From positions 1 to 29,325 of the forward strand of contig CAMLRZ010000012.1 of the NCBI GenBank assembly GCA_946482575.1: DNA of 29,325 bases, given 5' to 3'. Origin of the DNA: an uncultured Candidatus Saccharibacteria bacterium (GTDB lineage Bacteria; Patescibacteria; Saccharimonadia; Saccharimonadales; UBA4665). Shown here in pieces: positions 1-28,345 of this stretch. The notes under the pieces are model-generated. The model was not told where the DNA came from and did not search any database. It saw only the letters and a list, made by a program, of their open reading frames with translations. Within the stretch, counting starts at the first letter, position 1. Each line of letters opens with the position of its first letter. Both the position numbers and the translations under genes were made by a program.

Positions 1-249
1 GTTGGTGGGCGGAAGTGGTACAGAAGCGTCGGCAGCCGGTTGGACCGTTACTTTTTTGTTGCTGTCCATCAACGGACGTTCATCTCGATCTGACATCATC
101 GGATCCTTCACTTGGGGTTTATGCCCTACAATTACCGGTCGCGACGTTGGCGACACGGGCGTCTTGCCCGGGCGCATCACATCAAAAACCTTTTTTGTTG
201 CATCCTGAGGTCCAGTCTTGGCAGTTTTTTTAGAGGATTTACTCTTCAT
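1..249 (-). CDS. Hypothetical protein, N-terminal part only (runs off the left edge)
   Basis: Reading the minus strand from an ATG at 249 gives 83 open codons to the window edge. The product starts MKSKSSKKTAKTGP, is rich in Lys, Ser, Pro and Thr, and looks disordered; a stretch reading RPGKTPVSPTSRPVIVGHKP is its most distinctive part. No signal peptide or membrane segment is visible in the part present. The start lies inside the 3' end of tpiA (11-nt overlap), with AGGG just upstream, so the gene is probably translated by coupling to tpiA. I do not recognise the family; the C-terminal part is outside the window and could carry the functional domain. Confidence 0.7.
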   Translation of the reverse strand, partial: MKSKSSKKTAKTGPQDATKKVFDVMRPGKTPVSPTSRPVIVGHKPQVKDPMMSDRDERPLMDSNKKVTVQPAADASVPLPPTN

Positions 250-8842: not shown

Positions 8843-10510
8843 TTATAGCAGTGTCCAGCTCCAGGTTGGCGTACCGCCAGAGTATGTCAGCGTAATGTTT
8901 TTACCCGAAGGAACGACAACCATGCCAGGGCCAGTCAAAATACTGGCGCCATCAACCGCCACCCCCGTTACAGTGGCGCTGCCATTATTAACTTGTACGG
9001 CCGCATCGCGCCAGAACGGGTTGCGAAATGCCGTAGTGCTTGCAGAGACACCAGGTGCAGTAGTGGCACCCGGACCAGCGTCCAAGTAGATAACTTTTAC
9101 GTCGGTTGGGTTTGACACGTTTATGCTCGAAATGCTACCGCCAAGGCCAATGTAGCCGGTTGCGGTCCCCGTGCTATCTACCAAGTGGTTCATACTGCCC
9201 TCGACCGATAGCGCGTTAATAACCACGCGACCGCTCGCCACGATGTGCACGCCATTCACACAAGCCTCGATGCTTGCTCCACCAATCCAGTTGTAGTGTT
9301 GCTGTACCACGGAGCTAAAGAAAGAACCGCTCAGCATACCGGTGTAGCAATAAATTGCCGCCAGACGATCTGCCGACAAGTGCTCGCCCAGGTAAAAGCC
9401 ATAGGTTGCGCCATATACCGTACAGTTGCTCATAATAGAAAGGTCGTTGTTGCCCGGAACTGGCATGGCGATACCAAAGTTCCAGCCAGGCGTAGTGTAG
9501 GTGGCATTGAGCTGGCCAGGTGTTGCGTTGGGCAAGAAGCTGACGTCTTCAAGGTGGGCATTAGCCATACCTCGTAAGTCAACACCAGAAGTGTCTGATC
9601 CGCGGGCGGTCAATGGAACTTGAATTTGAATACCGCGAATAACAATATTGCAGTTAGAGTAGTTTGCACCCGATACAAAGCCGTTTGGCAACGTGGGACC
9701 GCCCAACACACTCCCCTCATTCGATGTACCTGACTGGTCGGGGGCGTTCCAGGTGGATTTAAGAGTTACGCCATTTACCTGGCCAGCGGTAGCGTTCCAG
9801 TGTGGCATAGAGGCCGCATCTGCTACACCAATCAGTGCCAGAGTAATTTTATTATCTGCATCATCAACTACTGGCAAGGCAAGTTGAGCGTTACCATCTC
9901 GATCGGTGCGACCAGCCGACGATAACAGATAGACGGCTGGCGGGAAAATAACTTCGGCATAGCTGTTATTGGCGGTGGCGTACGCAACAGCGGCATCAAT
10001 TGCGGCCTGAATGGCAGCCGTGTCGTTGGTGGTACCATCGCCCGCCGCACTGTATGGGGCGTCTTGCACGTTAAATTGCCAGGGATTAGTGGCCAGTGCC
10101 TGCCAAGATGCCGCAGTAGTACTAGTGGCCGTTAACACTGCGCCAGTTGCCGGCGTGCCGCTCACCGTTACACCATTAACTTTAGCCACCGTAGGGTTGG
10201 GGTAGGTGCCGCTTAGGTCACCGCCTGCGCTGGCACCTGTTTGCAACGCACCTGTTATGCGGCTGTCATCACCCGCAGCAACAGTACCCGCGGTAGTACC
10301 GGTAGGCAAGTTAGCAATAGGAACTTTTGAGCTTCCATTCAATGGCGCATAGCCATTTGCCTGGCCTTTATTAGTAGTGAGTTCAGCTCCTGCAGCCGTT
10401 ACCGCACTGTCTTTGAGGGTGCCATCATTGTTATGCGCTACACCTAAAAAATCGTTTAATACTGTGCCCCATACACCGTCATCTGATCCAGGATTCGGTA
10501 ACCGCGCCAT
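8843..10510 (-). CDS. Beta-helix (pectate-lyase-like) protein with MARLP N-terminal module
   Basis: The 555-residue product opens with MARLPNPGSDD, then WGTVLNDFLGVAHNNDGTL, a module shared with the protein at 28345. A low-complexity stalk follows (about residues 40-140) with a GDLSGTYPNPTV segment typical of phage tail-fibre-like proteins. From about 145 it resembles the pectate lyase 3 / parallel beta-helix superfamily: DGTTNDTAAIQAAIDAA, then IFPPAVYLLS, and many Asn/Gly turns to the end. No signal peptide is visible, so the export route is unknown. The ATG at 10510 has AGGGG 8 nt upstream. Function is probably surface binding or glycan degradation; catalytic residues were not identified. 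Confidence 0.8.
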   Translation of the reverse strand: MARLPNPGSDDGVWGTVLNDFLGVAHNNDGTLKDSAVTAAGAELTTNKGQANGYAPLNGSSKVPIANLPTGTTAGTVAAGDDSRITGALQTGASAGGDLSGTYPNPTVAKVNGVTVSGTPATGAVLTATSTTAASWQALATNPWQFNVQDAPYSAAGDGTTNDTAAIQAAIDAAVAYATANNSYAEVIFPPAVYLLSSAGRTDRDGNAQLALPVVDDADNKITLALIGVADAASMPHWNATAGQVNGVTLKSTWNAPDQSGTSNEGSVLGGPTLPNGFVSGANYSNCNIVIRGIQIQVPLTARGSDTSGVDLRGMANAHLEDVSFLPNATPGQLNATYTTPGWNFGIAMPVPGNNDLSIMSNCTVYGATYGFYLGEHLSADRLAAIYCYTGMLSGSFFSSVVQQHYNWIGGASIEACVNGVHIVASGRVVINALSVEGSMNHLVDSTGTATGYIGLGGSISSINVSNPTDVKVIYLDAGPGATTAPGVSASTTAFRNPFWRDAAVQVNNGSATVTGVAVDGASILTGPGMVVVPSGKNITLTYSGGTPTWSWTLL

Positions 10511-16708: not shown

Positions 16709-16752
16709 TTTACGCGTAATTTAACGAATATTTAACAATTGCGCTATATATT
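16709..16752 (+). promoter_or_regulatory. Promoter of the signalling operon with tandem 11-bp TTTAAC boxes
   Basis: TTTAAC at 16720-16725 and 16731-16736 (both preceded by A) form a direct repeat with an 11-bp period; a degenerate TTTACG at 16709-16714 continues the register. Exactly 10 nt after the last box comes TATATT (16747-16752), a 5/6 -10. There is no separate -35. Direct repeats with 11-bp period replacing the -35 are the hallmark of OmpR/PhoB-family activation, so the encoded regulator probably drives its own operon. Confidence 0.65.
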
Positions 16753-16779: not shown

Positions 16780-17454
16780 ATGCGACTGCTAATTATCGAG
16801 GATAACCTTGCTCTAGCTTGGAGGCTTCAGGCTTCGTTAGAGCGTGATTTTGAAGTGCACGTTGCCAAGATGGGCGCCAGTGGTCAGCGCCAAGCAGAGA
16901 CTGATCGCTTTGATCTGATTATTTTAGATTTGGGTCTGCCCGACATGAATGGCACAGAAGTCTGCAAAGGGATTCGCAGCGCCGGAATTGTAACGCCGAT
17001 TCTTATTTTGACGGGCGAGGACACGGTGCAGACCAAAGTACAGCTCTTTGGCGCAGGCGCAGATGACTACCTGACCAAGCCATTTGAGCTCGAAGAATTG
17101 CGAGCTAGAATTACCGCCCTGCTTCGCCGACGACAAGTCGGTGCACCGCCCACGTTATTGCAAGTGGGGGAGCTTCAAATTGATCCGGGCCAGCGCACTG
17201 TCGTCTACGCTGGCACCCCTATTCACCTGAGGCGCAAAGAATTCGACATATTAGAGTATCTGGCACGCAACCAAGGCAAAGTAGTAACTCAGGCCATGAT
17301 TTTTAATCACGTATGGGGCGAACTGGATAAGGACGTCTGGAACAATACGGTGCGCGTCCACGTTAAACACTTGCGAGACAAAATTGACCGCCCTTTTAAT
17401 ACGTCGCTGCTAAAGACAGCTCGAGGCGTAGGATATGTCCTGGAAGCACCGTAG
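16780..17454 (+). CDS. OmpR/PhoB-family response regulator (ComA role)
   Basis: A 224-residue two-domain regulator. The receiver domain (1-115) has the acidic pair in IIEDN, the phospho-acceptor Asp50 in LIILDLGLPD, Thr78 in LILTGED and Lys100 in YLTKPF. The winged-helix DNA-binding domain (about 128-222) has the family pattern RRKEFDILEYLARNQGKVV, then TVRVHVKHLRDKI and a wing ending ARGVGYVLEAP. It is the first gene of a four-gene operon with a candidate signal peptide, a histidine kinase and a prenyl/terpene enzyme. Its DNA box is probably the TTTAAC direct repeat before it. Bacillus ComA is of the LuxR/NarL type, so the regulator role is matched by function, not by homology. Confidence 0.95.
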   Translation: MRLLIIEDNLALAWRLQASLERDFEVHVAKMGASGQRQAETDRFDLIILDLGLPDMNGTEVCKGIRSAGIVTPILILTGEDTVQTKVQLFGAGADDYLTKPFELEELRARITALLRRRQVGAPPTLLQVGELQIDPGQRTVVYAGTPIHLRRKEFDILEYLARNQGKVVTQAMIFNHVWGELDKDVWNNTVRVHVKHLRDKIDRPFNTSLLKTARGVGYVLEAP

Positions 17455-17503
17455 CGTGCTACTATAGGGCAAACGCACAATAAAACTACTAAGGAGGAAT
17501 GGC

Positions 17504-17614
17504 ATGGAAAACGTCATCACCAATATCTTGACCAGCACAAGCGTCCGAAGCGATGCAGCGGTTGAAGAAGCACTTATTCAAGAGGTCGGCGTTGCCTCAC
17601 CGTGGGCAGACTAG
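17504..17614 (+). CDS. ComX-like signal-peptide precursor (candidate)
   Basis: A 36-codon ORF beginning MENVITNILTSTSVRS and ending EVGVASPWAD. It has the best ribosome binding site in the window, AAGGAGG (17491-17497), 6 nt before the ATG. It lies between the response regulator and the histidine kinase and overlaps the kinase start. The single Trp is third from the C-terminus, as in Bacillus ComX (...RQWGD), where that Trp is prenylated. The N-terminal part is acidic and amphipathic like a propeptide, with no hydrophobic signal sequence, Cys or lanthionine-type residues cluster. An alternative is a leader peptide for coupling; the C-terminal match and neighbours favour a pheromone. Mature length and modification are inferred. 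Confidence 0.75.
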   Translation: MENVITNILTSTSVRSDAAVEEALIQEVGVASPWAD

Positions 17615-19032
17615 GCCAGGCAAACACCCGTATGCTACGTTCTACTCATATCCTGCAGCGATTTGAGCGGGGCGTAGCCTCTTTGGTGGCGCCCCGGTCT
17701 ACTGATCCTAACACCAGCAGCCGCGAGCTGGCGCTGCGTACTATATTTTTGGGAACCCTTGGTCTTACCTTTGGTGCGCTCCTTATTGTGTGTGTTAATT
17801 ATTTTGTGTTGCATCTTGAGTACCTACTGGTGCGCATTGTGATAATCGGTGTAGTAGCCGTGGTGCTCCTTGGATTATATGCGATGGTTTTGCGCCAGCG
17901 CTTTACCCTCCCTGCTTTTAGTTTGCTGCTGGTTTACTTTATGGCGGCTACTATTGCCTGTTGGCTCTGGGGCGTAGAAACCCCAATCGGTACCCTTCTT
18001 TTTGCGTTGGTAGTCATATTTGCAGGCATTTTGCTTGGGGCGCGATATTCGCTCTATGCCGCACTGCTTGTGGTTGGCATACAAGTACTTTTTGTGGCGC
18101 TGCTGCATACCGGGGTGGCTCATCCTGATGAAACATGGGCGGCAACCCCGGCTCGTTTTTATGACGTGGTCGTGTTTGCCATAATACTGGGAAATATTGC
18201 GCTCATCTCGTGGCTGTTTAACCGATCCATGGAACGATCACTAGCCCGGGCACAACGGTCGGAACGAGCATTATTGCATCAAAAAGAATCATTGGAGATT
18301 ACGGTAGAGGAGCGTACTCGTCAGGTACAAGTTGCCCATTTGGAGCGCACGCAGGAATTGTATCGCTTTGCGGAGCTGGGACATATGAGCGTGGCGTTGC
18401 TGCACGACATGGCCAATTACCTTACGGTGTTATCGTTGGATATCGAAGGGCTCAAGCAAGCGCAAAAAAATCGGTCGGCTGCCATGCATCGTGTACAGGA
18501 AAGCACTCGCCACCTGAATAGCCTGATCAAGCAAGTACGCGGGCAGATACAAGGCGAAACTACTATCTCGCACTTTAACATTGCCGACGAAATAAGCCAG
18601 GTGATCAAGATTTTGGAGCACAAAGCTACCACCGCTCACGTTACAATCCAGTGGCAGCCGAGCTTGCCAAGTAAAGAGCTTGCCTACATTGGCAAAGTTA
18701 ATTATTTTTGGCAGATTATTATGAACCTTATTTCCAACGGCATTGACGCCTACGACACATCTAGCATCGTCAACAGAATAGTTACCGTGCAAGCAGTACC
18801 CACCGAAACACATATCATTATTAAGGTCACTGACTTTGGCAAGGGCATACCCGCCGCCAAATATGACAAGATTTTTGAGCCGTTTTACTCAACCAAAAAA
18901 GACGGCACGGGCGTAGGATTGGCCATTGCCAAGCGCATGGTTGAAAAAGATTTTGGTGGCACCATTGCAGTAGAAAGCTCAAAAGAATTGGGCACGACAT
19001 TTACCGTCGCACTGCCCCGCAGCACAGCCTAG
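17602..19032 (+). CDS. Six-TM sensor histidine kinase (ComP role)
   Basis: The 476-residue product has six hydrophobic segments (about 47-70, 75-98, 104-124, 128-145, 149-170, 187-206), a short coiled-coil linker (about 207-255) and a kinase core. Visible motifs are the H-box ALLHDMANYLTVL with His268, N-box NLISNGIDAY (N379), G1 DFGKGI (411-416), FEPFYSTK and GTGVGL (435-440). No separate extracytoplasmic sensor domain exists, so the ligand is probably sensed by the membrane part, as for ComP and other pheromone kinases. The GTG at 17602 overlaps the peptide gene by 13 nt; an ATG at 17632 is an alternative. Either way translation is probably coupled to the peptide. Confidence 0.93.
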   Translation: MGRLGQANTRMLRSTHILQRFERGVASLVAPRSTDPNTSSRELALRTIFLGTLGLTFGALLIVCVNYFVLHLEYLLVRIVIIGVVAVVLLGLYAMVLRQRFTLPAFSLLLVYFMAATIACWLWGVETPIGTLLFALVVIFAGILLGARYSLYAALLVVGIQVLFVALLHTGVAHPDETWAATPARFYDVVVFAIILGNIALISWLFNRSMERSLARAQRSERALLHQKESLEITVEERTRQVQVAHLERTQELYRFAELGHMSVALLHDMANYLTVLSLDIEGLKQAQKNRSAAMHRVQESTRHLNSLIKQVRGQIQGETTISHFNIADEISQVIKILEHKATTAHVTIQWQPSLPSKELAYIGKVNYFWQIIMNLISNGIDAYDTSSIVNRIVTVQAVPTETHIIIKVTDFGKGIPAAKYDKIFEPFYSTKKDGTGVGLAIAKRMVEKDFGGTIAVESSKELGTTFTVALPRSTA

Positions 19033-19033
19033 C

Positions 19034-20947
19034 ATGGACACTCCCCTTCACAAAACACTTCATTTTTTACGGACTCAGCAGCAAACGGACGGATCTTTTT
19101 TAGGCGATTCAAGCCCCCAAGCCGTGCCATTTACCTCAGACTATCGGTACCGAACGGTGTTTGCGCCCGCGCTGATATTGCGAGCGCTCAGCGCAGTTCC
19201 TCACGCTGGGGATATACAACAAAAGATAGCAGATTTTTTGATCACTCAAAAAAGTGCACATTGGTCGTTTAACTACTGGGCGCGCCAGAGCAATGAAGCA
19301 AAGTTCATGCCGTATCCCGACGATCTGGATGATACGTTTTGTGCGCTCAATGCCCTTTGGCTCCATGATCCGTCACGCATAACCGGAGCCGCCCTGGCTC
19401 ATATTACCAAAATACTGATTACTACCGAGGAGAGCGTGGGCGGGCCCTACCACACCTGGCTTGTGCCCAAAGATAGCCCGGCTGTATGGCGGGATACCGA
19501 CCTGGCTGTGAATGCCAACATCGCCCTCTTTTTGCAGCTGGCCGTTCAACCCCTGCCCAATCTCACCACTTTTATGGAAGAGGCTATCGCAAGTTGCTCG
19601 TTCCAGTCACCCTACTACCCCGATATGTACCCAATTATTTATTACCTGTCGCGTGCATATCGCGGCCCACAACGCCCTGCCTTGGTGGAGTTTATTAATA
19701 ACCGCTGTCTGCCTGACGGCCGCTGGGATACACCACTTCACACCGCATTAGCTATCTGTAGTCTCCGTAATTTGGAGCAACCTCTGCCGGCAGCAGCCCA
19801 GCAATATCTTATGCAAACGCAGCAGCAAAATGGTTCATGGCCCGCCGAAGCTTTTAGCATTGATCCCAAGCGCCAAGGTCGGGTTTACTATGGAGGATCG
19901 GCTGCGCTGACTACGGCCTTCTGCATCGAGGCGCTTTATGCACCCCACCGGTCTTCGGCAAAACCGCACAGCACAACAAAACCAAGCATCTACGCTACCA
20001 CTATTACCGATCGGGCGGCGCAGGATTGCCGCAGCCTGGACGGCGCCGTTCGTGATCCACTACTTGCCGCACTTGCCAGTGCGGCGCATGGTAAAAATGG
20101 CCAGGAAATTATCTGCCTGGCCAGCCATTTTTATAAAAATCTGCCACATTCACCAATCCTAGAACAGGCCACGCTTGATGCTTTGGCGCTGGCAAATCTG
20201 TACGGCTGGACAGCGTACACGTTGTACGATGACATTTTGGACGGCGACGCTGAGGTCGCTGTGTTGCCTGCCGCAAACGTGGCTATGCGCCGTTCGATGC
20301 ACTGGTTCTTGCAAGCAGTGCCCAACAGTCCGGCCTTTCATGCCCATGTCCGCACCACCTTTGATGCGATGGACGCCGCCAATGCCTGGGAGATAACCCA
20401 AGGCCGGTTCGCAATTAAAGATACGCACATAACTATTGGCACACTGCCATCGTATGGAAAGGGTCAGCAGCTCGCCCAGCGGTCACTGGGCCACACGCTG
20501 GCTCCACTGGGAGTCTTTGCTGCAGGAGGAGTAGTGCCACATGCAGCGGCCGCGCAAAAACTACAAACGGCGCTTACGCATTATTTAATTGCCAAGCAGC
20601 TCAACGACGACATTCATGACTGGGAGGACGACCTGCGAGCCGGGCATGGTACCTTTGTGGTATCGCACATATTGCGCTCGATCAAAATAACGCCCGGGCA
20701 ATACGACATCAACCAGCTTGTTGCACAGACTACACCCCACTTCTGGCACCATGTCCTTCCACAAATGTGCGAAATCATAGCACATCATATCGCCCAGAGT
20801 CGGGAGGCACTTGCAGCGGTCAGCCCGCTTGCCAGCAAGAATGTTGTGACGTCCCTTTTGGATACCCTTGATCAGGTGATGGCCACCACACGGGCCACCA
20901 TCACCCAAACTGAGGAATTTTTGAAAGCGTATCGCTCAGCGCCGTAA
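19034..20947 (+). CDS. Two-domain terpene-cyclase/prenyl-synthase-like enzyme (ComQ role)
   Basis: The 637-residue product starts 1 nt after the kinase stop. Residues 1-305 are an alpha/alpha-barrel of the squalene-hopene-cyclase/prenyltransferase type, with QW-like repeats (TQQQTDGSF, TQQQNGSWP) and a class II acid motif DLDDT (97-101). Residues about 325-637 are an all-helical polyprenyl-synthase (class I) domain with both metal-binding motifs: YDDILD (398-403) and NDDIHDWEDD (524-533). ComQ consists of the second type of domain only. The most likely role is modifying the Trp of the neighbouring peptide with an isoprenoid; alternatively it makes a free terpenoid signal. No signal or membrane segment is seen. 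The gene ends 2 nt from the convergent adhesin gene. Confidence 0.88.
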   Translation: MDTPLHKTLHFLRTQQQTDGSFLGDSSPQAVPFTSDYRYRTVFAPALILRALSAVPHAGDIQQKIADFLITQKSAHWSFNYWARQSNEAKFMPYPDDLDDTFCALNALWLHDPSRITGAALAHITKILITTEESVGGPYHTWLVPKDSPAVWRDTDLAVNANIALFLQLAVQPLPNLTTFMEEAIASCSFQSPYYPDMYPIIYYLSRAYRGPQRPALVEFINNRCLPDGRWDTPLHTALAICSLRNLEQPLPAAAQQYLMQTQQQNGSWPAEAFSIDPKRQGRVYYGGSAALTTAFCIEALYAPHRSSAKPHSTTKPSIYATTITDRAAQDCRSLDGAVRDPLLAALASAAHGKNGQEIICLASHFYKNLPHSPILEQATLDALALANLYGWTAYTLYDDILDGDAEVAVLPAANVAMRRSMHWFLQAVPNSPAFHAHVRTTFDAMDAANAWEITQGRFAIKDTHITIGTLPSYGKGQQLAQRSLGHTLAPLGVFAAGGVVPHAAAAQKLQTALTHYLIAKQLNDDIHDWEDDLRAGHGTFVVSHILRSIKITPGQYDINQLVAQTTPHFWHHVLPQMCEIIAHHIAQSREALAAVSPLASKNVVTSLLDTLDQVMATTRATITQTEEFLKAYRSAP

Positions 20948-20949
20948 GG

Positions 20950-23900
20950 TTATACTCGCTGGTGCGCTCGACGTCGCTCCCGTACCCACAGTGCAGCTGC
21001 GATCAAAGCGATTGCGCTACCCACTATCAGTGCTGTTTTTTGACCGGTGTTGGCAAGGCCGCCACCGTTAGCTGCCGCCAGTACGCCCGTCACGGTGTCC
21101 GATGCAGAGGTGTCGTTCAGGCTAGGATCAGGCGTAGCCGAGGTGATGCTGGCAGTGGTTACTAAGTTGCCTGTCTTGTTGATGACACCAGTAAGGAATA
21201 TTTGGTAACTAGTTACGGGGAACGTGGCCGCGTTACAGGTAAGCGTGGTGCCGCTCAAGCTACAGCCAAATGGGTTTGTTGCAGCAACGGCCTGTGGGAA
21301 GAGTGCATTGTTCAGTTTTGCCAGAATTGAACTGCCACCGGGCTCTGTGCCGCTCACATTAGTTACCTTGAGGCCTTCGGGCAGGTTGGAAGTCATGACC
21401 GCGTCAGTTGCCACCGAAGGACCGTGATTAGTAAGCGTGTAGGTGTAGGTGATTTGGTCGCCCTCATGATAGGTTTTTTGTTCGTGTGTGATATCGATAG
21501 CAAGGTCAGCCTGGTAATTAACGGTGTCTGAGGTGCTTGGTTGATTGGCCGAGGTGTCCGTGCCATTAAACGTAACGGTAGCACTGTTAACCGCAGGGTT
21601 TGGCGCGTCTGAGGCTACTGCAACTTCCACGTCTACACTGGCGGAATCCGTGTCAGCAAGTGCTGGGAGTGTACAGGTAACAACCTGTCCGGCAGCGTCA
21701 CAGTCCCAGGTGCCGTCCACGTCAGTAAATCCCTGATATGTCATGTACGAAGGTAGCGTGTCTTCAATTTTTACCGCGCCGGCAGCGTCAGGGCCGTTGT
21801 TGGTGACTGCAAAGCGATAGGTAGCGTCTTCACCAGCGGTAATGGTGCCCTGTAGAGTCTTGGTAGCGTCCAAATCAGCCTGAGCCTGATCAAAGTTGAC
21901 CGTGTCGGTGTCGGTGTTGTTGGCTGTGTTTGGATCGGTAGTGGCCGAGGCAATCGAAACCGTATTATTTACACTTGAGCCGGTAAATGCTGGGTCAACC
22001 GCCACTACCAGATCGATAACTACGGCGTCGCCATCGGCCATCGAAGGACCCACTTCACAGGTAACTGTTTGGCCGGCGTTGCTACAAGTTGTGCCCGTAG
22101 ATGTGGCGCTCACGTAGGTCAAGCCAGTTGGAAGCGTATCGGTAACTGTAGCAGTAGCAGCGTCTGACGGACCATTGTTCGTTGCGGTAATTGTAAATGT
22201 TCCGTTCGAGCCGGCTTTAAAGTTGCCGGTGTGTGTCTTGGTGATAGACAAGTCTGCGCTCTGCACAACTGTGTTGGTTGCCGTAGAGCTGTTGTTGCTT
22301 GTATCGGGGTCGTTGACGTCAGTAGGTGTCTCAACCACTGCAGTGTTGGCAATGTTGCCTGTTGCCGAAGATTCTGCCGCTACGGTAAGAGTAACCGTTG
22401 CGTCGTCTCCGCTGGTAATACCGCTTCCGGTACATGTCACGTCTTGGCCAACTGCGTTACAGGTGGCGCCGGTGGCACTAACGTATGAAAGGCTGTCGTC
22501 TAGCGTGTCGGTGACCGTGAATGATGCGACGTCAGAAGGTCCCGCGTTGCTCACTACAATATCGTAGGTGGCGTTGGATCCAGCCGTAATGTTTCCTGTG
22601 TGGCTCTTGGCTATAGATAGATCAGCATTTGGCTCAACACTGGCCGAGTCGGTATCAGTATTGTTGCCGGAGTTAGAGTCGGTGACGCCGCTTGCTGGTG
22701 CTACCGTGGCGCTGTTGTTTATGGTTCCTGTGGCGCTGCCGCTGATAGCCACATCAATAGTAGTAACTTGCGCTGGGTCGCCGGCACCAATTGCGCCGCC
22801 GGTGCAGGTTACGGCTTGGCCTGCAGCGCTACATGTTGCTGCGCTACCCGCTACCGTGCCCACAAAGGTTACCCCTGTCGGTAAAGTATCAGTAATAGTA
22901 TACGATGGCGAGTCGGCCGACGGGCCACCGTTGGTAACACTAAAGGCATATTGTGCCTGCTGGCCAGCTACAAAGGCAGTACCAACGTGGCTTTTAGTGA
23001 TGGCCAGATCGGCATCGGCATCAATAGTTACCGAATCGGTTGACGTGTTGCTCGCCGTGGGGTCTGGTGTGGTGCTAGTAACCTCCGCCGTGTTAGTGGT
23101 AGGCGAATCGGCAATAGGATCCACATGCACTTTCAATGTAATGGCGGAGGAGCTACCACCCGCAGTAATGACGCCACCGTAGTCACAGCTCACCGTATCG
23201 CCAGTGTTACTGCAGGTCCAGTTAGTACCCACAGCAGAGACGAAAGCAAAGTCTTCGTCCAGCGTGTCAGTAACGGTTACGCCACCGGCGACGGTGCTCG
23301 AAGGACCGGCGTTGTCTACAGTAATAGTAAAGTCGTTATCTGTGCCAGCCGTGAAGTTGCCGGTGTGTGCCTTGGTAACCGTCAGGTTTGTTTGCACCAG
23401 AACGTTTGAGCTATCGGTAGAGCTGTTGTTACCTGCGTTCGGATCGGTTGTGCCTCCTGGCGCAGCCACCGTGCCGGTGTTGGTAATAACACCGCCGGCG
23501 TACCCGCCGTCCACACTAACCGTAATGCTAAAGGTAGCTGTATTGCCAGATCCGCTACTTGTCAGTGCGCCGCCCGTGCAGGTTACAGCCTGGGCCACGG
23601 CGTTACACGTAGCGCCGGTAGCGCTCACATATGTTAAGTCTGCGGCAAGTGTGTCGGTAACTGTGAACGATGCTACGTCAGATGGACCGTTATTGGTCAC
23701 CGTAAAGTCATAGTTGTATGAGCCACCAGCCGTTGGTGTGCCGCTGTGGGCTTTGGTCATCGTGAGGTCAGCCTTTGGTGCCGCTGGCAAAGTGACACTT
23801 GCGCTGTTATTGCTCGAGTCCGGGTCGTTTGCCACGCTGGCAGATGCCGTGTTTATTTTGCTTCCCGTGACGTTTGAAGCTATATTCGCCTCAATAGAAA

Positions 23901-26373
23901 TGGTTGGAGCCGTAGCGCCATTGGCAAGTGCAGCGCGCGTACAGGTAACCGTTTGGCCAGACACATTGCAGTTCCATCCCGTACCGGTAGCACCGCTAGC
24001 CTTGGGCACAACACCTGCAGGCAACGTGTCGGTGACCGTCACTGTGCCAGCGTCTGACGGACCGTTGTTCTTGACAACCAGCTTGTATTCTAATGCTTCG
24101 CCGGGGGTGTAGCTGGTAATTGTAGCTCCACTCGGTGTGGCTGCCGTTTTACTAACAAATTCTATGTCAGAGCCAGCTAGTGAACCAAAGGTGAAGTAAC
24201 TGGTGCCTGCTGCCAGCGTTACCGTTGCTTCATAATTAGAACCGTTTGACGCCATGGTGGTTCGAGTTGAGCCGCCGTCAAAGGTGGTACTGTTACTGGT
24301 GTATAGCTCGCCGCTGTTGCCACCGGTAGCTGAAACCAGCGATTTAGGAATACTTATTTTTACTTGTCCCGGTGTATTAGTGCTCACTGCTTTCCAAATG
24401 CGGTTAATGCGGCTGTACGCACCAGTTACCGTAGTCGTGGCGTTGGTTGATCCACCATTGTCGCCCCATAATAAGAATGATTTATCGTTAGAAAAAGTAT
24501 TGCTGTTAGATGCGTTATCAGCGGCAATCGTGCCACGCCCGATAGTCACCTCACTGCTTCCTACCGATTGCTTCTGGTTCAACGTGCTCGTGTCGTCACG
24601 ACCGATTCCGGCAATGCGGTTGGGGAACGTCGTATCTTTAGCCCAGATAACACCGCTACCACTATCTACGTAGCTACCACTGTTGGTGCCTTGATAACGC
24701 GTAACACCCCATTTAATAGCCATGTATGAGAATACGCGAAGCTGTTCCGTGCTGGTAAGCGCGCGGTTAAAGTAGATTGCCTCACCAATAGGACCTGCAA
24801 AGCTGGTACCTGAGCTCCCGTTGGTACTACCAAAGGATGCACCCGTTTGACCACCACTGTTCGTTGTGTAGGTGCCGGTGGTAACGTTTTGCGCCTCTTG
24901 CTGGTCATCAACTCCAACAGAGCGTGACTGGTTGTTTGCGTTTGGCGAAATAAAACTGTAGACATGTGGAGCGCCCGTTTGCGCCGAAGAATACGTGTAC
25001 TGCAAGGGGCTGGTGCCACGTGCGTACAGATCAGGTTTGCCGTTGTTCATACTAATACTTGGTGTGTCGTCACCAAACTCGTTAAAGTAACGGTAGCCGC
25101 CATCGGTCCGCGTAGCAATTGCCCCAAAGTAGGCTGTCAGGCCGTTGGTGCCGCCAATACCTTGGGAGTCCATACGGAAAACGTCGTCACTACCGTCAAA
25201 TACGTAAGCTGGGTTAAAGTTAATCTGGTTTGTGCTCAACACCGGTTGTTTTGAGCCCGTAGCCTGCGTTAGGTTACGACCAGCGCCACTAAAGTCATTC
25301 CATTGTGCGTTCGTGTTGCCTGAACTGTCGGCCTTATACCACATGGCAACGCCGCTCACTCCAGCTGGGTCGGGTCCAATTTGGGTTGTGAATCGAATAA
25401 TTACAATACCGGAGCCACCAGCACCACCTGTGCCGCCAGAACCACCGCCGCCACCGCCTGAGCCAGTGTTGGCCGTTGCGCTGCTACCAGCACCCGTGCC
25501 AGTACCACCTGTGCCGCCACCGCCTGAGCCACCTGCTCCAAGTGTGCCGGTACTGTGGCGACCACCGCCGCCACCGCCTGCATACGTAACGGAAGAGCCA
25601 GTAATGTCATTGGCTGCACCGGCGCCACCGGCGCCTGCTACCTCGTTAGCACCTTCGGTACTATTGCCCGATCCGGTACCACCAACAGCGCTGGCGCCAC
25701 CGCCGCCGCCACCGCCACACCAACCAGTTGAGCCAGTACAGGGCGAGTTGTTGCCACCATTATTGCCCAGGCCCGTACCACCACTGGGCACTGTCCCTAG
25801 TTGGTTGCCCAAGCCAAAGGTGCCCGTGTTGCCGTTGATGCCGTTGTCACGACCAACACCACCGCCTGAGCCACCATTTAGGCCAGACTTGGTGGTGTAG
25901 CCACCTCCACCACCGCCACCTGGTGCAACAGCTGCCGATCCAATAGATGATGCGCTACCGCTAGTCGCCTGTCCATTGGACGTACCGCCCGAGCCACCGG
26001 CGCCTACTGTAACGGTGTACGATGTACCTTGCGTAATAGACATAGATGGCGCGGCAACCATACGGCCGGCGCCACCACCGCCACCGCCCGAGCCACCTCC
26101 ACCACCGCCACCGATAACCAGAACGCGCACGTTGCTGACGCCGCCAGGCGCCTTAAAGGTGCTAGTGCCCGTGGTCTTATATTGCAAAACCGTATCACTA
26201 CCCACGGTTGTTACTTGTGCGTTGCCGCTGTCCAGGCCGGGGTTTGTGCTAGCCACCGCCTGCATAGGCTGTTGGGCAACCAGTGCCGCTGCCATTAATA
26301 CGGTCAAGCTCGCAAAAATCAGTGCCCCCTGGCTACGGAATCCGCGACGTAGACGTTCTGTGATTGACTTCAT
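20950..26373 (-). CDS. Giant cell-wall-anchored adhesin: Gly-rich, DUF8202-like and eight DUF11 repeats
   Basis: The 1807-residue surface protein begins with a long signal peptide (hydrophobic 17-33). A Gly-rich domain (about 60-335) has long G and S runs. A LamG/DUF8202-like region (about 340-740) contains WYKADSSG and the IAGIGRDDTSTLNQKQS segment. Eight DUF11 Ig-like repeats (about 755-1740) each show xDLxxTKxHxG, NNGPSD and VTDTLP. The C-terminus is LANTG at 1773, a hydrophobic stretch and RERRRAHQRV, a sortase-type sorting signal. It likely acts in attachment. The start has AAGGAGG and overlaps the small membrane gene by ATGA, and the promoter carries the same 11-bp tandem boxes as the signalling operon. 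Confidence 0.92.
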   Translation of the reverse strand: MKSITERLRRGFRSQGALIFASLTVLMAAALVAQQPMQAVASTNPGLDSGNAQVTTVGSDTVLQYKTTGTSTFKAPGGVSNVRVLVIGGGGGGGSGGGGGGAGRMVAAPSMSITQGTSYTVTVGAGGSGGTSNGQATSGSASSIGSAAVAPGGGGGGGYTTKSGLNGGSGGGVGRDNGINGNTGTFGLGNQLGTVPSGGTGLGNNGGNNSPCTGSTGWCGGGGGGGASAVGGTGSGNSTEGANEVAGAGGAGAANDITGSSVTYAGGGGGGRHSTGTLGAGGSGGGGTGGTGTGAGSSATANTGSGGGGGGSGGTGGAGGSGIVIIRFTTQIGPDPAGVSGVAMWYKADSSGNTNAQWNDFSGAGRNLTQATGSKQPVLSTNQINFNPAYVFDGSDDVFRMDSQGIGGTNGLTAYFGAIATRTDGGYRYFNEFGDDTPSISMNNGKPDLYARGTSPLQYTYSSAQTGAPHVYSFISPNANNQSRSVGVDDQQEAQNVTTGTYTTNSGGQTGASFGSTNGSSGTSFAGPIGEAIYFNRALTSTEQLRVFSYMAIKWGVTRYQGTNSGSYVDSGSGVIWAKDTTFPNRIAGIGRDDTSTLNQKQSVGSSEVTIGRGTIAADNASNSNTFSNDKSFLLWGDNGGSTNATTTVTGAYSRINRIWKAVSTNTPGQVKISIPKSLVSATGGNSGELYTSNSTTFDGGSTRTTMASNGSNYEATVTLAAGTSYFTFGSLAGSDIEFVSKTAATPSGATITSYTPGEALEYKLVVKNNGPSDAGTVTVTDTLPAGVVPKASGATGTGWNCNVSGQTVTCTRAALANGATAPTISIEANIASNVTGSKINTASASVANDPDSSNNSASVTLPAAPKADLTMTKAHSGTPTAGGSYNYDFTVTNNGPSDVASFTVTDTLAADLTYVSATGATCNAVAQAVTCTGGALTSSGSGNTATFSITVSVDGGYAGGVITNTGTVAAPGGTTDPNAGNNSSTDSSNVLVQTNLTVTKAHTGNFTAGTDNDFTITVDNAGPSSTVAGGVTVTDTLDEDFAFVSAVGTNWTCSNTGDTVSCDYGGVITAGGSSSAITLKVHVDPIADSPTTNTAEVTSTTPDPTASNTSTDSVTIDADADLAITKSHVGTAFVAGQQAQYAFSVTNGGPSADSPSYTITDTLPTGVTFVGTVAGSAATCSAAGQAVTCTGGAIGAGDPAQVTTIDVAISGSATGTINNSATVAPASGVTDSNSGNNTDTDSASVEPNADLSIAKSHTGNITAGSNATYDIVVSNAGPSDVASFTVTDTLDDSLSYVSATGATCNAVGQDVTCTGSGITSGDDATVTLTVAAESSATGNIANTAVVETPTDVNDPDTSNNSSTATNTVVQSADLSITKTHTGNFKAGSNGTFTITATNNGPSDAATATVTDTLPTGLTYVSATSTGTTCSNAGQTVTCEVGPSMADGDAVVIDLVVAVDPAFTGSSVNNTVSIASATTDPNTANNTDTDTVNFDQAQADLDATKTLQGTITAGEDATYRFAVTNNGPDAAGAVKIEDTLPSYMTYQGFTDVDGTWDCDAAGQVVTCTLPALADTDSASVDVEVAVASDAPNPAVNSATVTFNGTDTSANQPSTSDTVNYQADLAIDITHEQKTYHEGDQITYTYTLTNHGPSVATDAVMTSNLPEGLKVTNVSGTEPGGSSILAKLNNALFPQAVAATNPFGCSLSGTTLTCNAATFPVTSYQIFLTGVINKTGNLVTTASITSATPDPSLNDTSASDTVTGVLAAANGGGLANTGQKTALIVGSAIALIAAALWVRERRRAHQRV

Positions 26374-27625: not shown

Positions 27626-28345
27626 TTAGAATCCTTTGGCGCCCAGCGCCCCATACCAATTTGTACCGCCGTCCACCGTAAATAACGAAATAATATCCAT
27701 TTTGGAGGCGGTAATCGTAAGGCTTGGTGCCCCAGCATTGCCCCATTTAACGCTGCCCGGCCAGGTTATGGTACGGGAGCCGACCCCATCCTGAAAAACA
27801 AGCAGCGTCAGCGAGCACATAACACCGCTCGCTGGACTGGCAAGACTTACTGTGCAATTTGCTGTCAGCGTCACTTTTTGCACATTACCGTTAGCTGCGT
27901 TAAGCGCCAACGCCGCCCCAGAGTTGCCAGCATCAAAAAAAGTCTCGCCACCACCGTTGGTCGTAGACACTTTGCTGGCAAGGGCAGGAACGGTTGGTGA
28001 ATCTGCGGTGCCAGCAAGATCGCCAGCCAGCTGCACGATACCCTTGCTCGTGGTAGTGGCATCGGGTGTGCTGACGCCTGCCACGGAATCATCGACGTAC
28101 GTCTTGTTGGCCGCCTGACTGGCCAGCGTTGGCGTTGGCACAACGGGCGAGGAGCTGAACGTCTTGGTGCCGGCAACCGTCTCAGCGCCAGTGTTATGCA
28201 CGACCGCTGAATCAGAAGCCGCTCCGGCATTTGTAACGGCACTACTTTTTAGCGTGCCGTCACTGGCATGCGACACATCCAAAAAATCGTTGAGGACCAC
28301 TCCCCAACTGTTGTCATCGCTACCAGGAATCGGAAGACGAGCCAT
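27626..28345 (-). CDS. MARLP-module tail-fibre-like protein
   Basis: The 239-residue product begins MARLPIPGSDD, then WGVVLNDFLDVSHASDGTL, matching the module of the protein at 10510. A low-complexity middle contains AETVAGTKTFSSSPVVPTPT and ANKTYVDDSVAG, patterns common in phage tail-fibre proteins. The C-terminal beta domain has LFVFQDG-like and TITWPGSVKWGNAGAP segments and ends TNWYGALGAKGF. No phage genes are nearby, so it is more likely a surface appendage or secreted binder than a prophage remnant. TATAGT lies 6 nt before the ATG. Confidence 0.82.
   Translation of the reverse strand: MARLPIPGSDDNSWGVVLNDFLDVSHASDGTLKSSAVTNAGAASDSAVVHNTGAETVAGTKTFSSSPVVPTPTLASQAANKTYVDDSVAGVSTPDATTTSKGIVQLAGDLAGTADSPTVPALASKVSTTNGGGETFFDAGNSGAALALNAANGNVQKVTLTANCTVSLASPASGVMCSLTLLVFQDGVGSRTITWPGSVKWGNAGAPSLTITASKMDIISLFTVDGGTNWYGALGAKGF

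What the first reader, a model, noticed from the sequence alone, without database searches (positions are those of the whole stretch)
16780..20947. A ComQXPA-like prenyl-peptide quorum-sensing locus in a Patescibacterium
Seen: four plus-strand genes in tight order, response regulator, 36-aa peptide ending SPWAD, six-TM histidine kinase overlapping the peptide gene, and an enzyme with two prenyl-synthase Asp-rich motifs 1 nt later. Known: Bacillus ComQXPA has the same four roles, with ComQ a prenyl-synthase-fold enzyme that prenylates the Trp near the ComX C-terminus (...RQWGD). Inferred: this is an independent or highly diverged version. Differences are real: OmpR-type instead of LuxR-type regulator, a larger two-domain enzyme, a shorter peptide, and a different gene order. 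I know of no described prenyl-peptide signalling in Saccharibacteria.
Basis: partly seen in the sequence, partly recalled or inferred. Interest (0 to 1): 0.95.

Follow-up and report, generated by a model that had tools for sequence, protein, structure and literature searches.

The report
Terpene-tagged peptide signalling in Patescibacteria
A small operon found in many lineages of the tiny Patescibacteria encodes a gene regulator, a short peptide with a tryptophan near its end, a membrane sensor kinase and a two-domain terpene-type enzyme; the enzyme is predicted to hang an isoprenoid on that tryptophan and close it into rings, and the product is likely a cell-to-cell signal, which would be the first of this kind known in these bacteria.

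Summary
In detail: RR, a 36-aa peptide ending SPWAD, a six-TM histidine kinase and a 637-aa enzyme lie in tandem at 16780-20947. It is not a one-off. In 56 of 56 distinct related loci with usable upstream DNA a short reading frame with Trp 2-7 residues from its end is present; when the ORF is picked by its N-terminal pattern alone, 55 of 56 carry that Trp. 31 of the 34 first loci are titled as Patescibacteria, 3 only as 'bacterium'. The enzyme is a class II terpene cyclase domain (DxDD in 44 of 46 read) joined to a prenyl-synthase-fold domain (Q..DD..D in 54 of 54 aligned). Peptide and prenyl-synthase domain stay together even where the cyclase half has decayed or the kinase is missing. An 11-bp direct repeat before the RR (TTAA-N7-TTAA in 24 of 38 loci against 1.1 expected) predicts autoregulation. 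Best reading: a ComQXPA-like circuit whose pheromone is a terpenylated tryptophan peptide, with ChrPC-type chemistry. It fails ComQXPA membership tests. Trp prenylation, ring closure and sensing are inferred; no biochemistry was done. New variant of a known kind, high interest.

The parts
16720..16736 (+). 11-bp-spaced direct repeat TTTAACGAATATTTAAC, predicted binding box of the operon's own response regulator, ending 43 nt before its ATG
   Evidence: Only match in the window at up to 3 mismatches, 0.57 expected; TTAA-N7-TTAA upstream of RR in 24 of 38 loci against 1.1 expected
16780..17454 (+). OmpR-type response regulator gene
   Evidence: PF00072 and PF00486 above cut-off; homologue within 600 nt upstream of the kinase, same strand, in 38 of the 50 loci gone through
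17504..17614 (+). 36-aa precursor peptide gene; leader-like N-terminus (ILTSTSVR), Trp third from the end in SPWAD
   Evidence: leader-only test 55 of 56; L9 and R15 in 90% or more of 40 rows; Pro before the Trp in 47 of 55
17602..19032 (+). six-TM sensor histidine kinase; start may be ATG 17632
   Evidence: HATPase_c 6.5e-23; H268 in 98% of 47 homologues; membrane helices, long linker helix and kinase core in model m13f3b70087e9, pLDDT 83.2, pTM 0.49
18403..18405 (+). phospho-acceptor His268 of the kinase (role inferred)
   Evidence: invariant in A4, 26 of 26
19034..20947 (+). two-domain terpene cyclase / prenyl-synthase-fold enzyme, 637 aa
   Evidence: AF2 model pLDDT 89.2, pTM 0.73
19034..19954 (+). 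C domain (residues 1-307): class II terpene cyclase fold
19322..19336 (+). DLDDT, DxDD acid motif of the C domain
   Evidence: DxDD in 44 of 46 cyclase domains with letters there, 47 rows
19976..20884 (+). P domain (residues 315-617): polyprenyl diphosphate synthase fold
20228..20242 (+). first Asp-rich motif DDILD of the P domain
   Evidence: first D in 53 of 54, fifth D in 54 of 54
20597..20620 (+). second Asp-rich motif QLNDDIHD with the Gln before it
   Evidence: Q, D, D, D each in 54 of 54

Best explanation
The operon encodes a response regulator, a short tryptophan-bearing precursor peptide, a six-TM histidine kinase and a class II cyclase / prenyl-synthase-fold fusion enzyme, and it likely works as an autoinducing signal circuit in which the enzyme would prenylate the peptide's C-terminal-region tryptophan and ring-close the prenyl chain, and the kinase would sense the released product. 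Shown here: the genes, their recurrent order, the Trp, the two predicted folds and their motifs, the linkage of peptide to the P domain, and the 11-bp repeat before the regulator gene. Inferred: the N-terminal part of the peptide is a leader bound by the enzyme; the P domain transfers a C10-C20 isoprenoid from a diphosphate to the indole; the C domain, by protonation at DxDD, then cyclises it (order taken from ChrPC); a protease and an exporter encoded elsewhere cut and release the C-terminal core; the kinase detects it at the membrane and phosphorylates the regulator, which binds the repeat and raises its own operon.
Against: No biochemistry. The Gln before the second motif is also in an ordinary prenyl synthase (FQIRDD), so it does not by itself prove Trp transfer. 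ComQ with DDxx in its second motif loses Trp transfer (PMC5331326), and this family has DDxxD; PalQ keeps Asp there and does transfer, so the point is open. No conserved protease or exporter: an ABC-type protein is in 5 of 50 loci at no fixed place. Three loci have peptide and enzyme without the kinase, so signalling is not universal. 2 of 23 carrier genomes lack PF00348, as do 2 of the 12 genomes. The co-occurrence test does not correct for kinship, genome size or completeness (completeness is not told). Only one usable cyclase-only negative exists (L110). The kinase's membrane half is hardly more variable than its kinase half (0.44 against 0.48), no strong sign of signal-receptor diversification. 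Further box sites are under the control count in complete genome G001 (4 against 11).
Confidence: 0.72

Rival explanations
1. The enzyme makes a free cyclic terpene that the kinase senses, and the short peptide is a small protein subunit or activator of the enzyme and not its substrate.
For: Both halves have terpene-making folds; the peptide follows the enzyme, not the kinase, as a subunit also would; no exporter or protease is linked at a fixed place.
Against: The tail is variable apart from the Trp and the Pro mostly before it, the pattern of a modified core; the cyclase half is dispensable while the peptide is not; a 2026 review says all characterised trans-IDS-like prenyltransferases act on Trp (PMC13290415 section 9).
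Confidence: 0.13
2. The product is a terpenylated antimicrobial peptide that, like some lantibiotics (recalled), also induces its own operon through the kinase; signalling is only self-regulation of a weapon. The chemistry is as in the best explanation, so this rival overlaps with it.
For: Loci without kinase keep peptide and enzyme, as a weapon would; no clear regulon was found beyond the operon.
Against: No immunity or export gene travels with it at a fixed place.
Confidence: 0.3
3. The small ORF is a regulatory leader (attenuator) of the kinase and enzyme genes, and its Trp codon serves translation control.
For: It sits just upstream of the kinase in most loci.
Against: One Trp in 50 of 55 peptides, not a Trp run; conserved positions L9 and R15 far from the Trp; in L066 it lies with the kinase away from the enzyme, on the other strand, and in L078, L080 and L081 there is no kinase.
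Confidence: 0.03

Closest known systems
ComQXPA of Bacillus (ComQ, ComX, ComP, ComA)
   Same: Four roles: prenyl-synthase-fold enzyme, short peptide with Trp near the end (ComX: 3rd or 4th from the end, PMC5331326 passage), multi-TM kinase, response regulator; variable peptide tail
   Different: Order RR-peptide-kinase-enzyme; OmpR-type regulator; six TM instead of 8-10 for ComP (PMC4008528 passage); peptide mostly 32-40 aa against 53-58; a leader-like motif, where none is obvious in ComX (PMC5331326 passage); DDxxD second motif against NDxxx; added class II cyclase domain; the 2014 census found none outside Firmicutes (PMC4008528 abstract)
ChrPC and NctPC, prenyltransferase-cyclase fusions of ribosomal peptides (Hubrich et al. 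2024; original PMC11484575 not held; known to me through review PMC13290415)
   Same: A Trp prenyltransferase fused to a terpene cyclase domain (MstE-like in NctPC), peptide substrate; in ChrPC the transferase is prenyl-synthase-like
   Different: Here the cyclase domain comes first in the chain (order in ChrPC not checked); bound to a two-component system with a predicted regulator box; Patescibacteria; peptide of 36 aa. No sequence comparison was made, as the ChrPC sequence was not at hand
PalQ/PalX/PalP of Paenibacillus alvei (PMC10853753)
   Same: Transferase of prenyl-synthase fold, Trp peptide and a histidine kinase in one three-gene cluster; Q197/D200/D204 spacing as in Q522/D525/D529
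   Different: PalQ is blocked by residues after a C-terminal Trp (review), here the Trp is 2nd to 7th from the end; PalX has a nitrile hydratase-type leader; the cluster as told has no regulator and no cyclase
Drimenol/drimenyl diphosphate synthases and MstE (class II cyclases)
   Different: Fused to a prenyl-synthase-fold domain instead of a HAD domain or standing alone

Membership tests
ComQXPA quorum-sensing systems | Four adjacent genes: transferase, Trp peptide, multi-TM kinase, regulator | tested here: met
   window; regulator within 600 nt upstream of the kinase in 38 of 50 loci; order differs from Bacillus
ComQXPA quorum-sensing systems | Transferase matches PF00348, the Pfam family given for ComQ in PMC4008528 | tested here: not met
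   no PF00348 match at E 0.1 in 32 of 32 members of A1
ComQXPA quorum-sensing systems | Pseudo second Asp motif NDxxx (or GDxxx) | tested here: not met
   DDxxD in 54 of 54; requirement read in PMC5331326 section 7
ComQXPA quorum-sensing systems | First Asp motif, first and fifth Asp | tested here: met
   53 of 54 and 54 of 54
ComQXPA quorum-sensing systems | LuxR-type (ComA-like) regulator (recalled) | tested here: not met
   Trans_reg_C, OmpR type
Trans-IDS-like Trp peptide transferases (ComQ, PalQ, ChrPC P domain) | Prenyl-synthase fold | tested here: met
Trans-IDS-like Trp peptide transferases (ComQ, PalQ, ChrPC P domain) | Gln just before the second Asp motif | tested here: met
   54 of 54; also seen in an ordinary synthase, so not exclusive
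Trans-IDS-like Trp peptide transferases (ComQ, PalQ, ChrPC P domain) | Isoprenoid transferred to peptide Trp | not testable with these tools
   needs enzyme assay
Trans-IDS-like Trp peptide transferases (ComQ, PalQ, ChrPC P domain) | Sequence kinship with ComQ, PalQ or ChrPC | not tested
   their sequences were not at hand
Class II terpene cyclases | Alpha-alpha barrel fold with DxDD | tested here: met
Class II terpene cyclases | Proton-started ring closure | not testable with these tools
   needs enzyme assay
Chain-making trans-prenyl synthases (PF00348) | IPP-binding basic residues (GKR before, RRG after the first Asp motif; recalled) | tested here: inconclusive
   no RRG after the first motif in the consensus of A1, present in the neighbouring true synthase; profile alignment weak
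Two-component systems | Conserved His, N, G boxes; receiver plus output domain | tested here: met

The most novel reading that the evidence does not exclude
Patescibacteria talk by a pheromone class of their own: short ribosomal peptides carrying a ring-closed terpene on tryptophan, made by one cyclase-transferase fusion, sensed by a dedicated six-TM kinase and self-amplified through an OmpR-type box. Lineages that lost the cyclase half use a linear prenyl form, and lineages that lost the kinase keep the terpenylated peptide for another use.
Probability: 0.55. Interest if true: 0.93.

Novelty: new variant of a known kind. Interest (0 to 1): 0.87.

Why it matters
The 2014 census of ComQXPA-like loci found none outside Firmicutes (PMC4008528 abstract), and none of the titles and abstract openings shown (capped lists) describes prenyl-peptide signalling in Patescibacteria. 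These are very small, mostly host-dependent bacteria with few regulators (recalled); a dedicated signal circuit in them bears on how episymbionts time attachment, surface-protein production or gene exchange. It also gives a large natural set of cyclase-transferase fusions with matched peptides for making terpenylated peptides, and a natural experiment (cyclase decayed in at least two places of the tree) on what the ring closure is for.

Tried and rejected
Viral contigs held no relative of the enzyme. A profile alignment of the P domain with neighbouring prenyl synthases was too weak to place the IPP-binding residues (probability 3.5). The kinase model gave no informative relative of its sensor part: the 50 rows shown are mainly histidine kinases, and no ranges are printed. 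A search for further regulator targets by the box, both strands against the reversed pattern: G001 4 against 11, G003 10 against 2, G004 18 against 12, G005 12 against 5; six sites, one of them an operon's own, were looked at in G001, G003 and G004, among them one 45 nt before a 982-aa secreted protein (G001) and one before a Crp-type regulator just upstream of the operon (G003). No regulon is claimed. The ABC-type proteins in 5 of 50 loci were not followed up. A first idea that the enzyme is a plain ComQ was dropped on motif and family tests.

Rows dropped before counts. Peptide count: L001 and L017 (contig ends before the peptide region; L001 still shows a kinase end), L076 and L114 (contig end), L065, L082, L107 (same genomes as L006, L025, L021, by identical peptides), L110 and L111 (cyclase domain only). 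L111's contig starts inside its gene, so only L110 serves as a negative: no peptide, no kinase (leader score 1.8, no Trp). L081 has masked letters inside the peptide frame: counted as present, left out of the 55-peptide composition count. L016 has the peptide frame but no ATG, GTG or TTG start: counted as present by eye, failed the automatic tests. L029's peptide has a poor leader score. In some loci (such as L069, L071, L073, L074, L077, L106, L109, L112, L113, L117) a longer ORF exists and I took the start that fits the alignment. P-domain counts: 60 loci were given to, 54 had a hit of 200 residues or more; of the other six, L019, L022, L025 and L033 are cut by contig ends, L030 and L081 scored too low but have Q..DD..D (the first motif of L030 was not found by my pattern). 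Cyclase motif: 47 rows, L024 without letters. The 40-row alignment A3 was made of ORFs chosen partly for their Trp, so its Trp column is not independent evidence; one search was run for that.

Full report
WHAT IS THERE. The four genes are at the stated coordinates and in tandem. RR is an OmpR-type regulator, the kinase has a HATPase_c core. The peptide is 36 aa with a good ribosome site and ends in SPWAD. The enzyme starts 1 nt after the kinase stop. The claimed overlap of kinase and peptide gene holds only for the GTG start at 17602; ATG 17632 is as likely. No whole genome is held for the window. The enzyme's nearest relative with an organism name is from a Saccharimonad genome (62% identity, P0003); an unnamed one is 97% identical (P0001).

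HOW WIDE IT IS. The enzyme has 581 homologues at E 1e-3 or better among 7996 scored candidates, 120 listed. Across the listings, 13 proteins carry an organism name: 11 Saccharibacteria or other Patescibacteria, one 'Bacillota' and one 'Candidatus Acidoferrum' bin. A scan of the species-genome collection with two conserved patterns gave 48 matches and 34 confirmed loci; 31 titles name Patescibacteria lineages (Saccharibacteria, Daviesbacteria, Levy-, Shapiro-, Colwell-, Nomura-, Taylor-, Uhr-, Moran-, Berkelbacteria and others), 3 say only 'bacterium', none names another phylum. That scan would miss forms without those patterns, and no phylum outside Patescibacteria was searched otherwise. Whole-genome searches found a match in 23 of 392 genomes of the class of G001 (Saccharibacteria by its record title), 7 of 334 of the class of G008 (Colwellbacteria; 2 of the 7 match the cyclase domain only) and 8 of 281 of the class of G006 (Microgenomates). 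The spread is patchy.

THE NEIGHBOURHOOD. Over the 50 loci clustered the recurrent protein clusters are the enzyme (50 loci), kinases (46), regulators (39), a true polyprenyl synthase (9; 7 on the enzyme's strand) and an ABC-type protein (5, at no fixed place). The synthase overlaps the enzyme's end on its strand in 5 loci (L004, L005, L011, L020, L070), is upstream in L010 and L067, and lies on the other strand in L012 and L066. No exporter or protease is conserved at a fixed place.

THE PEPTIDE. Before the kinase, or before the enzyme where there is no kinase, every locus with usable DNA has a short frame with Trp near the end: 33 in the first set (window, L002-L034 without L017, L016), 15 in the second (L066-L081 without L076), 8 in the third, 56 of 56. 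The third set was fetched after the rule was fixed. Since looked for Trp, an independent test was made: a profile of the first 16 residues only, leave-one-out, picks the best ORF; it carries Trp in its last 8 residues in 55 of 56 loci (L016, which has no standard start, fails), while 62 of all 192 candidate ends, these 55 included, have one. In the 40-row alignment L9 and R15 are in 90% or more. In 55 peptides the Trp is 2 to 7 from the end, Pro precedes it in 47, 50 have a single Trp. Shuffle test: 46 of 48 against 5.0 expected, strict 43 of 48 against 0.93. No two of 54 aligned P domains are 80% identical or more.

WHICH PART BELONGS TO THE PEPTIDE. In 12 of the 54 tree rows, enzymes of 422-601 aa, the cyclase domain scores only 0 to 60 bits and no DxDD motif was found at its place; ten lie in Saccharibacteria-class genomes, two (L108, L109) in another class and apart on the tree, whose support values I did not read. 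A GGPY stub is left in 10 of 10 rows of A2. Eleven of these twelve have the peptide; the twelfth, L076, is cut by the contig end. The one usable cyclase-only protein, L110, has neither peptide nor kinase. L078, L080 and L081 have peptide and enzyme side by side and no kinase in the 9-10 kb fetched; their genomes hold only matches to the kinase's C-terminal half, E 2.8e-12 at best, against 9.7e-114 in G001 (completeness not told). So the peptide is tied to the P domain. That is what a substrate, or a subunit, of the P domain would do.

SUPPLY. PF00348 synthases are in 10 of 12 host genomes, and in 21 of 23 carriers against 104 of 369 non-carriers of one class (Fisher p 1.5e-9, no correction for kinship, genome size or completeness).

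CIRCUIT. The kinase has six TM segments in the window (4-6 in 45 of 47 homologues by hydropathy) and conserved His, N and G boxes; the model has membrane helices, a long linker helix and a kinase core. The membrane half is a little less conserved than the kinase half (mean top-residue share 0.44 and 0.48), not a strong contrast. Upstream of the regulator gene an 11-bp-spaced direct repeat is in 30 of 38 loci (8.6 expected; next best spacing 13 against 8.0), TTAA-N7-TTAA in 24 of 38 (1.1 expected; next best spacing 5 against 1.3). Some loci of another class carry ATAAAG repeats with the same period. The 11-bp period is that of OmpR/PhoB-type boxes (recalled).

HOW IT LIKELY WORKS. The leader-like start of the peptide would dock on the enzyme; the P domain would move an isoprenoid from a diphosphate to the Trp; the C domain would then cyclise it, the order described for ChrPC (review PMC13290415: section 9 read, passages of section 8; the original paper is not held). 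The tail would be cut off and exported by proteins encoded elsewhere, sensed by the kinase, and the regulator would raise its own operon. The chemical, export and sensing steps are inferred.

AGAINST KNOWN SYSTEMS. Works like ComQXPA; not a member: the second motif and the regulator type fail, and there is no PF00348 match. ComQ loses Trp transfer with an Asp-first second motif (PMC5331326 section 7), a point against the reading; PalQ has D200 and D204 there and does transfer (PMC10853753 passages), a point for it. The nearest chemistry is ChrPC, joined here to a two-component circuit. Papers: PMC10853753 outline, first part of section 5, section 12 and passages; PMC5331326 section 7 and passages; PMC13290415 section 9 and passages; PMC4008528 abstract and passages; PMC12715784 one passage. 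Searches for prior description: of which I saw listings, often capped; subscription papers and preprints are largely not held, so an unseen description is possible.

Noticed in passing
window 20950-26373 (-): 1807-aa protein with glycine-rich start, many repeat domains and a sortase-like end (LANTG, hydrophobic stretch, RERRR), convergent with the enzyme gene.
   Followed up: no
L090 3735-3780 (G001): A near match to the regulator box lies 45 nt before a 982-aa secreted protein in a complete Saccharibacteria genome; another site lies before a Crp-type regulator just upstream of the operon in L092. G001 counts are under the control, so only leads.
   Followed up: partly
window 8843-10510 and 27626-28345 (-): Two proteins share the start MARLP(N/I)PGSDD..W..VLNDFL with otherwise different bodies, like exchangeable surface or fibre proteins with a common anchor (guess).
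   Followed up: no
L080 5-559, L081 3293-3775, L078 9179-9718: The three regions with peptide and enzyme but no kinase each hold a similar small membrane protein gene (LIRLIAD..V..VVLIGA.A.LF); it may be a lipid diphosphate phosphatase (guess) or shared chromosome context.
   Followed up: no
L024 7881-9748: Enzyme copy in a Colwellbacteria genome is split into two reading frames; broken copy or assembly error.
   Followed up: no
genomes G078 and G109: Two carriers of short enzyme forms show no PF00348 synthase, so their donor must come from elsewhere or the gene lies in a missing part of the assembly.
   Followed up: no
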